Below, in pieces: positions 27,323 through 32,247 of a stretch of DNA of 64,000 nt (the stretch's first letter is position 1; the number at the start of each line of letters is the position of its first letter). The notes under the pieces were generated by a model, which was not told the DNA's origin, did no database searches, and saw only the letters and a list, made by a program, of their open reading frames with translations. Location: contig JAJYYO010000019.1 in NCBI GenBank assembly GCA_021800795.1, positions 1 to 64,000 on the forward strand, given 5' to 3'. The translations under genes were made by a program, and so were the position numbers. This stretch comes from Pseudomonadota bacterium (GTDB lineage Bacteria; Pseudomonadota; Gammaproteobacteria; Burkholderiales; Gallionellaceae).

Positions 27323-30300
27323 TTACCCTACCCATTTCCTGGCGTTCTGGAACATTTTCAGCCATGCGCCGTTCTCCTGCCAGCCGGATGGATGCCAGGA
27401 ATTTTGCACGGCGCGGAACACGCGCTCGGGATGCGGCATCATGATGCTAAAACGCCCGTCCGGCGTGGTCAATCCGGTGATACCTTGCGGCGATCCGTTC
27501 GGGTTGAGCGGGTAGGTTTCAGTGGCTGCGCCGCGATTATCCACATAGCGTAGCGTGACCTTTGCCGCCGCTAGTTTTTCTGCGCTGCTAAAACGCAGTT
27601 TCAGTGACGACTCATGCCCGCTTGCGGGCGTGATGTCGGAACTAAAATCGGCATAGCCTTCACCATGCGCGACCACGATCGGCATGCGGCTGCCGGCCAT
27701 ACCCTCAAACAGAATGGAGGGGGATTCCTGCACTTCCACCATTACGAAACGCGCCTCGAACTGTTCGGACTGGTTGCGCGAAAAATGCGCCCAGTTTTCG
27801 GCCCCTGGGATGATTTCGTGCAGATTACTCATCATCTGACAGCCGTTGCATACGCCCAGCGCAAAAGTATCGGCACGACTGAAGAAGGCTTCGAATTCGT
27901 CGCGCGCCCTTGAGTTGAACAGGATGGATTTCGCCCAGCCTTCGCCCGCACCCAGCACGTCGCCGTAGGAAAAACCGCCACAGGCCGCCACCCCCTTGAA
28001 ATCGCTCAATTTGACGCGACCGCTGATCACATCGCTCATGTGCACGTCCACCGCCGCGAAACCTGCGCGGTCGAATGCTGCGGCCATTTCCACCTGACCG
28101 TTCACCCCCTGCTCGCGCAGGATGGCGATCTTCGGGCGTGCAACAGGATTGAGGATCGAGGATCGAGGATTAAGAAAAACAGGTGCTTCGTTCGGATCAT
28201 AGGTGAGCTTCGCATGCAGCCCGGGATCGTTCACGTCCAGCAGACGATCGAATTCGGACTGCGCGCAATCCGGATTGTCGCGCAGCTTCTGCATCTGATA
28301 GGTGGTCTCGGACCAGATGCGTTGCAGGTTGACGCCGCTGTCACTAAACAGCGTATCGCCGCCACGTCGAACTTCAATCAGGCCGGTCCGATTCAGGGTG
28401 GCGATCTTCTGCACGCTCAGCCCCGCTTTTTTCGCCTGCTTCATGACATGCGCGACATCGCTGTTTTTTACCTGAATCACTGCACCCAGTTCTTCGTTGA
28501 ACAGCGCGCTCAGCGTATCGCCATGCATTTCGTCGAGCTGCACGTTCAAACCGATATGCGAGGCGAAAGACATTTCGCACAAGCTGACGAACACACCGCC
28601 GTCCGAGCGGTCGTGATAGGCGAGCAGCTTGTCATCGAGATTAAGTATTTGAATAAATTCAAAAAATGATTTCAACGCAGCGGCAGAATCCACATCCGGC
28701 GCGATATCGCCTACCTGCTTGTACACCTGTGCCAGGGCCGAGCCGCCCATGCGGTTTTTGCCCTGTCCAAGATCGATCAAGAGCAGCGTGCTGTCAAGAT
28801 CGGCAGCCAGCTGAGGGGTCAGCGTATCGCGCACATCCGCGCAAGGCGCAAACGCGGTTACGATCAGCGACAGGGGGGATGTGACCGATTTATTTTCAGC
28901 ACCTTCAGTCCATGTAGACTTCATGCTCATGGAATCCTTGCCGACCGGAATGCCGATGCCCAATGCCGGGCACAGTTCCATGCCCACTGCCCTGACGGTA
29001 TCGAACAGCGCGGCATCTTCGCCGTGATGCCCGGCTGCCGCCATCCAGTTCGCCGACAGCTTGATGTCGCCGATCTTTGCGATGCGCGCTGCCGCGATAT
29101 TGGTGAGCGCCTCGCCTACCGCCATGCGTCCGGAAGCCGCCGCATTGACCAGCGCCAGCGGCGTGCGTTCGCCCAGTGCGAACGCCTCGCCCAGATAGGT
29201 GTTGAAGCCCATCAGGGTCACGGCAACGTCCGCCACCGGCGCCTGCCAGGGGCCGACCATCTGGTCGCGCGCGGTCATGCCGCCCACAGTGCGGTCGCCG
29301 ATGCTGATCAGAAAAGTCTTGTTGGCAACCGAGGGCAGGCGCAACACGCGCTCGACAGATTCCTGCAAGTCGAGCGTACCGGTATCGAATGCTGCCAGTT
29401 TCGGCGTTTCGCGCACCACGTTGCGGGTCATTTTAGGCGGCTTGCCCAGCAACACCGACAGCGGCATGTTCACCGGGTCGTTGTCGAACTCGGTGTCGTG
29501 CACGATGATCTGATCGTCCTCGATGGCCACACCCACCACCGCGAACGGACAGCGCTCGCGCTCGCAGAAAGCCTTAAATTCGTCCAGACGTTCCGGCGCG
29601 ATCGCCAGCACATAACGCTCCTGCGATTCATTGCACCAGATCTGCCTGGGCGACATGCCGGTTTCATCCAGCGGAATCTTGCGTAATCCAAATGCAGCAC
29701 CCCGTCCGCCGCCATGCACCAGTTCAGGCAGCGCATTGGACATGCCGCCCGCGCCCACGTCGTGAATCGACAGGATAGGATTATTCTCACCCAGCTGCCA
29801 GCAGCGGTCGATCACCTCCTGCGCGCGCCGCTGCATCTCGGGATTGCCGCGCTGCACCGAATCGAAGTCCAGATTCTCGGCATTGCTGCCGGTATCCATG
29901 CTGGAGGCTGCCCCTCCACCCAGACCGATCAGCATGCCGGGGCCGCCCAGATGCACCACGAGCGCGCCTATCGGCAGATCGTGCTTGTGAGTGTGTATCG
30001 CCGAGATGCTGCCCAGGCCGCCCGCCAGCATGATGGGCTTGTGATAGCCGCGCATCTCGCCGCCGACCTGCTCTTCAAAGGTGCGGAAATAGCCGGTCAG
30101 ATTCGGACGGCCGAACTCGTTGTTGAATGCCGCACCGCCCAACGGGCCGTCCAGCATGATCTGCAACGCGGTGACGATGCGCGAAGGTTTGCCGTAAGGC
30201 GTTTCCCACGGCTGCTCGAATCCGGGGATATTCAGGTTGGAAACGGAAAAACCGGTCAGACCCGCCTTGGGGCGTGAACCGATACCGGTCGCACCCTCGT

Positions 30301-31258
30301 CGCGGATCTCGCCGCCGGAACCGGTCGCAGCACCGGCAAAGGGCGCAATTGCGGTCGGATGGTTATGCGTCTCCACCTTCATCAGCGTATGCGTCAGCTC
30401 CTCGCTGAATGCGTAGGCGCCGCCGGCACGCGGATAAAAACGTTCAACTGATGCGCCCTCGATCACCGACGAATTGTCGGAATACGCCACTACCGTGCCC
30501 TTTGGGCTGACCTTATGGGTGTTGCGTATCATGCCGAACAGCGACATGTCCTGAACTTCGCCGTCGATCACCCAGTCTGCGTTGAAAATCTTGTGGCGGC
30601 AATGCTCGGAATTGGCCTGCGCGAACATCATCAGTTCGACATCGGTCGGATTGCGCTTGAGCTTCTTGAAATTTTCGACCAGATATTCGATCTCGTCGGT
30701 GGATAACGCCAGCCCCATCTCGCGGTTGGCAGCACTCAAAGCGTCAGCGCCGCCCAGCAGGATATCCACCGTTGCCAACGGCTGGGACTTGCCATGCCGG
30801 AAGATTTTTTCTGCCGCACCTTCAATCGAATCCAGCACAGATTCCGTCATTCTGTCATGCAGCAGGGGCAATACCGCCGTGCGTTCAGCCGCGCTCAATT
30901 GAGCGCCTGCTTTCAGGTAATACTGCACGCCGCGTTCGATGCGCTCAATCCCGTTCAGGCCGCAATGCTGCGCAATGTCAGTCGCCTTGGTGGACCAGGG
31001 AGAAATCGTGCCCAGACGCGGCACCACCAGCACGCGAATGAATTCGCCGGCAGGCTCACCCGTCGTTTTTCCCAGACCCAGCACCTGGTCCAGCAGGCCT
31101 GCCTGCACCTTGTCGAGTGTCTTGCTGCGCAGTGCACTGAAGTAGCAGTGGCGTGCATCGGCAATAACGACGTTGGGTGCGACCGCGTTCAATGCAACGC
31201 GCAATTTTTCCAGACGAAAGGCGGATAAGGCGGAACTGCCGACAGAGACTTTAAACAT
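27323..31258 (-). CDS. purL: phosphoribosylformylglycinamidine synthase
   Basis: PurL makes FGAM from FGAR, glutamine and ATP in purine synthesis. The single-chain form of 1311 residues is present: N-terminal PurS-like domain ([14 protein letters not shown]), the two synthetase halves ([32 protein letters not shown]), and the C-terminal glutaminase with [13 protein letters not shown] and Cys in [11 protein letters not shown] choose the ATG at 31258; the ORF-track start adds 20 residues in the divergent promoter. The linker before the glutaminase carries an extra [10 protein letters not shown] encoded by a heptad repeat. It is divergent from nnrD. Confidence 0.96.
28146..28171. repeat. heptanucleotide repeat inside purL
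   Basis: GGATT, GAGGATC, GAGGATC, GAGGATT lie in 7-nt register inside the coding region, encoding [10 protein letters not shown] with a 7-residue period in the linker between the synthetase and glutaminase domains. The reading frame is preserved. Confidence 0.85.
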
Positions 31259-31332
31259 GACGGTTGAGAATAAAATTCGGGACGCGATTATACTATGCGC
31301 CGCAGCAAAGCCGGCCATTCATCAAAGACATC

Positions 31333-32247
31333 ATGATTCCGCAAACCATAGAACAGAGCCAGGTCGCCAGATTTTTGCCAAAACGCCCGCACGACAGTCA
31401 CAAGGGCATGTTCGGCACGGTAGTTGTCATCGGCGGGGCATCCGGCATGACAGGCGCAGCACTGCTGGCCGCCCGCGCAGCGCTCAAACTGGGTGCCGGT
31501 TGCGTGCATGCGGTGCTGCTGGCGGAGAACGCGCCATCGGTTGATTTTGTCCAGCCGGAGCTGATGATTCATAAAGCTGGTTTTGTCATGCCCGCGCAGG
31601 CGGGCATCCAGTTCGATAAAAACACTGGGTTCCCGCTTGGCCGCGAGCTCGAAACTTCGCTACGCTCGTTTTCGCGAGAACGACAGGTTATAGTGGCCGG
31701 TTGCGGCATGGGCAGCGATGCAACTGCACATAAATTACTCACAGAAGTGTTACACAGCACGGCATCAATGGTGCTCGATGCCGACGCGCTGAACCTGATT
31801 GCAACACACCACGAACTGCGCGACCGGCTGATCGCCCGTAAAAATCCCACCGTGCTCACGCCGCATCCCGGCGAGGCCGCGCGCCTGCTCTCATGCAGCA
31901 CGAAGCAGATTCAGGAGGATCGCATCGCATCGGTGCAGCAATTGGCCGGAATGTTCAGCTGTTCGGTGGTATTAAAAGGCGCAAACAGCCTGTGCGCTAC
32001 CGGCAAAGGACTGTTCGTCAATCACACCGGCAATCCCGGCATGAGCGCGCCCGGCATGGGCGATGTGCTGGCCGGCATGATTGCATCCTTCATCGCCCAG
32101 GGGCTTAACGCGGATGACGCACTGCTTCTGGCGGTACACCTGCATGGCGCGGCGGGCGACGAACTGGCAAAACAGCGGGCCATCGGCATGACCGCGACGG
32201 AAGTCACCGATCAGGCCCGCAGCCTGCTGAATCAGTGGGGTTCATAA
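31333..32247 (+). CDS. nnrD: ADP/ATP-dependent NAD(P)H-hydrate dehydratase with inserted repeat peptide
   Basis: NnrD (YjeF C-terminal domain) restores damaged NAD(P)H hydrates. The ribokinase-like fold motifs are visible: MFGTVVVIGGASGMTGAALL, LDADALNLIA, LTPHPGEAARLL, VLKGANSL and the catalytic NPGMSAPGMGDVLAG (family GSGDVLAG, with Met replacing Ser in this protein). The N-terminal epimerase domain of full-length YjeF is absent. I choose the ATG at 31333 (MIPQTIEQSQVARFL), 304 residues. About 37 residues between VQPELMIH and VIVAGCGMG are encoded by a dispersed repeat (VMPAQAGIQ...) and interrupt the normal sequence. Confidence 0.9.
   Translation: MIPQTIEQSQVARFLPKRPHDSHKGMFGTVVVIGGASGMTGAALLAARAALKLGAGCVHAVLLAENAPSVDFVQPELMIHKAGFVMPAQAGIQFDKNTGFPLGRELETSLRSFSRERQVIVAGCGMGSDATAHKLLTEVLHSTASMVLDADALNLIATHHELRDRLIARKNPTVLTPHPGEAARLLSCSTKQIQEDRIASVQQLAGMFSCSVVLKGANSLCATGKGLFVNHTGNPGMSAPGMGDVLAGMIASFIAQGLNADDALLLAVHLHGAAGDELAKQRAIGMTATEVTDQARSLLNQWGS
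31575..31690. repeat. PAQAGIQ-type dispersed repeat inserted in frame in nnrD
   Basis: The insert begins gtcatgcccgcgcaggcggg, containing the hairpin GCCCGC/GCGGGC, and ends with arms around ttcgctacgctcgttttcgcgagaacga. In one frame it reads VMPAQAGIQ, a widely recurring translation of a repetitive element in proteobacterial genomes. The nnrD frame is kept across it. The exact boundaries are estimated from where homology to NnrD stops and resumes. Confidence 0.75.

What the first reader, a model, noticed from the sequence alone, without database searches (positions are those of the whole stretch)
31575..31690. PAQAGIQ repeat inserted in frame inside nnrD
About 37 residues (VMPAQAGIQ...) encoded by a palindromic dispersed repeat interrupt NnrD between VQPELMIH and VIVAGCGMG, with the frame intact on both sides. 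It resembles the palindromic elements that insert in frame in Rickettsia genes. The catalytic residues remain, so the enzyme may still work with a surface loop added.
Basis: partly seen in the sequence, partly recalled or inferred. Interest (0 to 1): 0.55.

Follow-up and report, generated by a model that had tools for sequence, protein, structure and literature searches.

The report
Repeat DNA translated inside NnrD loop
In a free-living iron-bacterium relative (Gallionellaceae) a scattered palindromic DNA repeat sits in frame inside the gene for the repair enzyme NnrD, adding a floppy surface loop; the insertion itself is of a known kind, but the same loop is filled by unrelated repeats in about a third of the genus, marking it as a recurrent landing place.

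Summary
Confirmed. nnrD is window 31333-32247 (+, 304 aa). Residues 84-118 (31582-31686) are encoded by a 102-bp dimer of a dispersed palindrome: [T]GTC, 8-bp stem, 4-nt loop, CCA tail, then a 13-nt spacer and a second, inverted, long-loop copy. The repeat matches the published CGTC-1 REP class (dRS3 in Neisseria, RPE-6 in Rickettsia conorii). 76 copies occur in this 3.2-Mb genome, none in a reversed-pattern control. Frame, conserved residues and fold are intact (AlphaFold pLDDT 92, insert the only disordered stretch). The insert replaces about 7 loop residues, net gain about 28.

Beyond the finding: of 64 congeners with complete nnrD, 20 carry repeat-derived inserts in this one loop, from at least three unrelated dispersed repeats. 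None lies elsewhere in NnrD, and AU tests reject a single origin for each type. Neighbouring PurL shows the same in several loops; ThrS does not. In this genome REPs also sit in frame in Mfd, HsdM, HsdS and a WbpP-like epimerase.

Best reading: near-random insertion of selfish palindromes, filtered for frame and tolerant loops. In-frame REP/RPE insertion is known; multi-family recurrence at one loop across a genus is the new part.

The parts
31333..32247 (+). nnrD, ADP-dependent NAD(P)H-hydrate dehydratase (304 aa), with insert
31582..31686 (+). codons 84-118: stretch foreign to the NnrD family (35 aa), replaces about 7 native loop residues
   Evidence: comparison with congeners lacking an insert; low pLDDT
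31584..31685 (.). REP dimer, 102 nt, two CGTC-1-type units with CCA tails facing each other
31584..31611 (+). REP1: TGTC tag, stem ATGCCCGC/GCGGGCAT, loop GCAG, tail CCAG
31612..31624 (+). 13-nt spacer TTCGATAAAAACA; same length and similar sequence in other short-spacer dimers of this genome and in G031 nnrD
31625..31685 (-). REP2, inverted: TGTC tag, stem GTTCTCGC/GCGGGAAC (one G-U), 37-nt loop, tail CCAG; long-loop variant with two other copies in the genome (L002, L003)

Best explanation
The insert is a dispersed CGTC-1-type REP dimer that entered the nnrD gene and replaced about seven codons of a variable surface loop between strand residues 78-81 and the GCGMG strand 118-124. Its length (102 nt = 34 codons) and the absence of a stop in the frame used let the gene be read through, giving an NnrD with an extra flexible loop (sequence: shown; protein: inferred). 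It works as selfish or neutral DNA. Such palindromes insert at many places, most in-gene insertions break genes and are lost, and those that land in frame in a tolerant loop survive. [quoted passage not shown] Shown: dispersed repeat, intact frame, purifying selection on nnrD, same-loop recurrence with three unrelated repeat families. Inferred: insertion by an unidentified mobilising enzyme, neutrality, and that the enzyme is active.
For: 76 genomic copies against 0 for the control pattern; anatomy fits CGTC-1; homology on both sides; insert disordered, rest of the model above pLDDT 90, matches NnrD crystal structures. Same loop carries inserts in 20 of 64 congeners: CGTC-1 in 2, GEG-type in 12, SKG-type in 5, a short GGGTGCGATAAATCGCACCC palindrome in 1. 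GEG and SKG sequences are themselves dispersed in those genomes, 0 in controls. Monophyly of the carriers is rejected on the nnrD tree built without the loop: REP p-AU 0.021, SKG 3.9e-5, GEG 8e-7. No insert over 5 columns elsewhere in NnrD, none over 9 in ThrS. PurL shows the same in several loops. dN/dS 0.16-0.33 in the pairs compared, several of which carry inserts. Precedent: Rickettsia guanylate kinase with an RPE is translated and active (PMC2229807).
Against: No mobilising enzyme was tied to the repeat: 5 Y1-transposase matches in the genome have none of the three repeats nearby. No target-site duplication or exact empty site from a near-identical strain was seen. Each repeat type could in part have spread between species by loop-scale gene conversion, since SKG loops share their edges in several genomes. 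Activity and expression are untested.
Confidence: 0.82

Rival explanations
1. The loop DNA is a true insertion hot spot: a sequence or secondary structure there attracts REP-like elements, and protein tolerance is secondary.
For: Inserts of the SKG and GEG types start and end at nearly the same codons in several genomes; nested insertions occur in G083 and G026.
Against: Repeats with unrelated ends land in the same loop, and several different loops of PurL are hit as well with no common target visible; the loop DNA differs between species.
Confidence: 0.2
2. Few old insertions, spread between species by recombination or kept by descent with repeated loss; the different loops are then not independent landings.
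For: SKG loops and their edges are alike in G012, G067, G099 and G083; GEG loops share a downstream NVKxNFN.
Against: The NVKxNFN part resembles the dispersed repeat itself at other places (AACG[TA]GAAA... in L212, and AACGAGAAAAGCAATCTTCAAT in L215). One origin per type is rejected on the nnrD tree; three unrelated repeat types need at least three events.
Confidence: 0.25
3. The insert is kept because it does something: a regulatory hairpin in the mRNA, or a binding loop on the enzyme.
For: REPs are hypothesised to act as RNA elements in other systems (PMC3733652); the insert RNA folds a little better than shuffles (z -2.05).
Against: Insert sequence, length (19 to 62 aa loop) and type vary freely between species and most congeners have none.
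Confidence: 0.06
4. Ordinary lineage-specific loop extension or an assembly artefact, not a repeat insertion.
For: Loop length varies naturally in the family: 28-30 aa in Firmicutes.
Against: Exact repeat anatomy and 76 dispersed copies; independent genomes with other repeats at the site; the place is deep inside a contig of at least 64 kb.
Confidence: 0.01

Closest known systems
CGTC-1 REPs (dRS3 of Neisseria; RPE-6 of Rickettsia conorii), PMC3733652
   Same: [C/T]GTC tag, 8-bp stem, 4-nt loop, CCA tail, dimers, dispersed, some in frame inside ORFs; no associated transposase found here or there. Sideroxydans lithotrophicus, a Gallionellaceae relative, is already listed as CGTC-positive in that paper.
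   Different: REP2 here has a 37-nt loop; stem of REP1 carries ATG/CAT in place of ATT/AAT; insertion in nnrD not reported in the passages read; here unrelated repeats share the same protein loop across a genus.
Rickettsia palindromic elements (RPE) in protein genes (Ogata et al., reviewed in PMC2229807)
   Same: Palindromic repeat of about 100 bp, open in a frame, inserted in conserved enzyme genes without loss of frame; one case shown active (guanylate kinase).
   Different: Free-living betaproteobacterial lineage, not an obligate intracellular one; several repeat families at one loop.
REPs at about the same site in recB of Xanthomonas campestris and X. oryzae (PMC3733652)
   Same: Different repeats at one site of one gene in related species.
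   Different: There one pair of species; here 20 of 64 species in nnrD, with several more loops in purL.
GTAG REPs with RAYT transposases (PMC8266576)
   Same: Short dispersed palindromes with a tetranucleotide tag.
   Different: No GTAG tag; no RAYT flanked by the repeat was found.

Membership tests
CGTC-1 REP | Terminal CGTC (often TGTC or CCTC) | tested here: met
   TGTC at 31584-31587 and, inverted, 31682-31685 (definition)
[quoted passage not shown]
   REP1 stem ATGCCCGC/GCGGGCAT meets it; REP2 stem GTTCTCGC/GCGGGAAC begins G-C then T-A, a departure also seen in other copies (GTCGTTCCC)
CGTC-1 REP | 4-nt loop | tested here: inconclusive
   REP1 loop GCAG meets it; REP2 has a 37-nt loop
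CGTC-1 REP | Unpaired CCA tail | tested here: met
   CCAG after both stems
CGTC-1 REP | Dispersed, multi-copy, mostly dimers | tested here: met
   76 places, many as facing pairs on opposite strands
CGTC-1 REP | No flanking tyrosine transposase | tested here: met
   5 Y1_Tnp matches, none with the repeat in the fetched flanks
In-frame protein-coding palindromic element (RPE-like) | Repeat lies inside a conserved gene, frame intact on both sides | tested here: met
In-frame protein-coding palindromic element (RPE-like) | Relatives lack the element (empty site) | tested here: met
   44 of 64 congeners have a loop without a recognised repeat (13-20 aa)
In-frame protein-coding palindromic element (RPE-like) | Protein is made and active with the insert | not testable with these tools
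   needs expression and enzyme assay
MITE | Terminal inverted repeats with target-site duplication | tested here: inconclusive
   Dimer ends are inverted repeats; no duplication visible. Other short-spacer dimers lie inside longer inverted repeats (AAGGAACCGCTGATTTATTCG, L005-L007), which are absent in nnrD
GTAG REP / RAYT system | GTAG tag and REP-flanked RAYT gene | tested here: not met
   Tag is TGTC, no REP beside any of five Y1_Tnp matches

The most novel reading that the evidence does not exclude
In this Gallionellaceae genus a set of protein loops (NnrD loop 81-122, PurL loops near 165, 372, 805 and 1050) act as recurrent sinks into which several unrelated families of dispersed palindromes are inserted, replaced and nested again and again, so that repeat DNA supplies a turnover of new loop sequence in housekeeping enzymes of free-living bacteria.
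Probability: 0.6. Interest if true: 0.65.

Novelty: new variant of a known kind. Interest (0 to 1): 0.5.

Why it matters
In-frame palindromic inserts were described mainly from Rickettsia and a scatter of REP-rich genomes, usually one gene and one repeat at a time. A genus in which the same loop is hit repeatedly by unrelated repeats gives natural replicates. It lets one separate target preference from selection on the protein, and gives ready-made maps of loops that tolerate 10-45 extra residues in NnrD and PurL.

Tried and rejected
Assembly artefact or simple loop expansion: rejected by exact repeat anatomy and independent genomes. RAYT-driven origin: five Y1-transposase matches but no repeat beside any, so not supported. 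NnrD as the only target: rejected, since PurL, Mfd, HsdM, HsdS and a WbpP-like epimerase carry in-frame repeats too. A single ancestral insertion: rejected per type by AU tests, with loop-scale conversion left open. Paper searches for the related peptide PAKAGIQ and for repeats in Gallionella gave nothing direct.

Full report
OBSERVATION. The window gene at 31333-32247 (+) encodes a 304-residue stand-alone NnrD (PF01256 1.9e-55; TIGR00196 2.8e-64) next to purL (minus strand) and thrS. Between QPELMIHKAG and VIVAGCGMG lie 35 residues, FVMPAQAGIQFDKNTGFPLGRELETSLRSFSRERQ (codons 84-118, 31582-31686), without a counterpart in relatives. The frame is open on both sides, and the residues invariant over 131 homologues are present.

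ANATOMY. The DNA is a 102-nt dimer (31584-31685, 34 codons). REP1 is TGTC-ATGCCCGC-GCAG-GCGGGCAT-CCAG. A 13-nt spacer (TTCGATAAAAACA) follows. REP2 is inverted, TGTC-GTTCTCGC-[37 nt]-GCGGGAAC-CCAG. BLAST with the element finds 46 places in the genome, including two other copies of the long-loop REP2. A pattern for the monomer finds 76 places at up to three mismatches, and none for the reversed control. In the frame used here the second unit ends GAACGAC (ERQ). The commoner GGAATGAC would give TGA in this same frame, so the variant present matters for read-through (sequences; reasoning mine). Other short-spacer dimers of this genome (L004-L006, L016) also end in GAACGAC.

COMPARISON WITH THE KNOWN CLASS. 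PMC3733652 defines CGTC-1 REPs by a CGTC (often TGTC) tag, an 8-bp stem, a 4-nt loop, a CCA tail and mostly dimers. It equates them with dRS3 in Neisseria and RPE-6 in Rickettsia conorii, reports intragenic copies in several species, and finds no dedicated transposase. Sideroxydans lithotrophicus ("S. lithotrophicus" in the text) is among its CGTC-positive species. REP1 meets all criteria; REP2 departs in loop length and in its first stem pair.

PROTEIN. AlphaFold with 131 homologues gives mean pLDDT 92. Only the insert region is low (blocks of 10 residues from 81: 64, 47, 61, 73), and all other blocks are above 90. Foldseek matches NnrD structures (3rss 6.8e-23, 3rph, 2r3b). The loop length varies in the family at large, with 28-30 residues in Firmicutes against 13-17 in most betaproteobacteria, which fits a tolerant site. 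Its distance to the active site was not measured.

THE LOOP IN THE GENUS. All 76 held genomes of the genus were searched; 65 have nnrD at E <= 1e-20, and 64 complete ones were compared. Twenty have repeat-derived inserts in exactly this loop. G000 (window) and G031 carry CGTC-1 dimers. Twelve carry a GEG-type repeat (PLPNPLPQAGEG-type, CCCTCTCCCCAACCCTCTCCCGCnnGCGGGAGAGGGGGCAAACG...). Five carry an SKG-type repeat (TPFALSLSKG, CCGTTCGCCCTGAGCnnGTCGAAGGGC). One (G032) has a short GGGTGCGATAAATCGCACCC palindrome, whose dispersal was not tested. Some of the twelve GEG-type loops (G028, G064, G066, G036, G088) have altered stems and are assigned by resemblance. GEG and SKG patterns are dispersed in most of these genomes, often in tens of copies, with zero in controls. 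Nested inserts occur in G083 and G026. No other place in NnrD has an insert longer than 5 columns.

INDEPENDENCE. On an nnrD tree built without the loop, the insert types need 17 changes together. At least 8 changes of the empty state are forced by well-supported branches. AU tests reject one clade for REP carriers (p 0.021), SKG (3.9e-5) and GEG (8e-7). Loop-scale gene conversion between species is not excluded, most of all for SKG, whose loop edges are alike. Three unrelated types need at least three landings in any case.

SELECTION. dN/dS between pairs is 0.16-0.33, including pairs where both carry inserts (G094-G073 0.19, G016-G066 0.23), so the genes are under purifying selection.

NOT ONLY NNRD. 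In this genome REPs also lie in frame in a WbpP-like epimerase (two inserts), Mfd, HsdM (one REP and one GEG-type insert), a second HsdM, and HsdS. HypD has a GEG-type insert. In the genus PurL has repeat-like inserts near residues 165, 372, 805 and 1050, the 372 loop in nearly all of the 20 genomes fetched because their matches were split. That sample was chosen for inserts, so it is not a frequency. ThrS shows no insert over 9 columns in the 30 sequences aligned, and its full-length matches in the genus are unbroken.

MECHANISM. The simplest account is mobile palindromes, near-random landing, and a filter on frame and protein tolerance. Unrelated ends at one site speak for protein tolerance over a DNA target. 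What moves CGTC repeats is unknown here as in the literature: none of five Y1-transposase matches has the repeat beside it. Precedent for activity is Rickettsia guanylate kinase with an RPE, which is translated and active with changed affinity (PMC2229807).

VERDICT. The single insert is a new member of a known kind. The multi-family recurrence at the same loops across a free-living genus is a new variant; the nearest precedent found is recB in two Xanthomonas species.

Noticed in passing
window 27323-31318 (-), PurL; relatives L269-L288: PurL of the genus carries repeat-like in-frame inserts in several loops (near residues 165, 372, 805, 1050), with many different repeat types; the window's own PurL has none of these.
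   Followed up: partly
L013 (own genome, C47 about 6.7 kb): WbpP-like UDP-sugar epimerase with two in-frame REP-containing inserts, of about 60 and 13 residues.
   Followed up: yes
L264 (own genome, C62 about 18.4 kb): Mfd transcription-repair coupling factor with an in-frame REP dimer (VAPAQAGAQSIEELDPRFRGDDG).
   Followed up: yes
L024, L027, L254 (own genome): Two HsdM genes and one HsdS gene of type I restriction systems carry in-frame repeat inserts; one HsdM carries two different repeat types.
   Followed up: partly
L257 (own genome, C46 about 50.3 kb): HypD with an in-frame GEG-type insert near its N-terminus; a REP dimer lies just upstream of the HypD start.
   Followed up: partly
L004-L007, L016 (own genome): Short-spacer (13-nt) REP dimers lie inside longer inverted repeats (AAGGAACCGCTGATTTATTCG), a MITE-like nested unit.
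   Followed up: no
L035 (G031 nnrD loop): Besides the REP dimer the loop carries about 13 further residues (QQVIDPDHNFKDS) of unknown origin.
   Followed up: no
L254 N-terminus, L017, L176 (G083 nnrD): A further dispersed palindrome-like repeat encoding MEPLAIRL...KSLVM, nested inside the SKG repeat in G083 nnrD.
   Followed up: no
L210 (G013 nnrD, partial): A 30-residue loop (WLKARNESRHYDDTQPHDKSILSSNVLVL) that matches none of the repeats recognised here.
   Followed up: no
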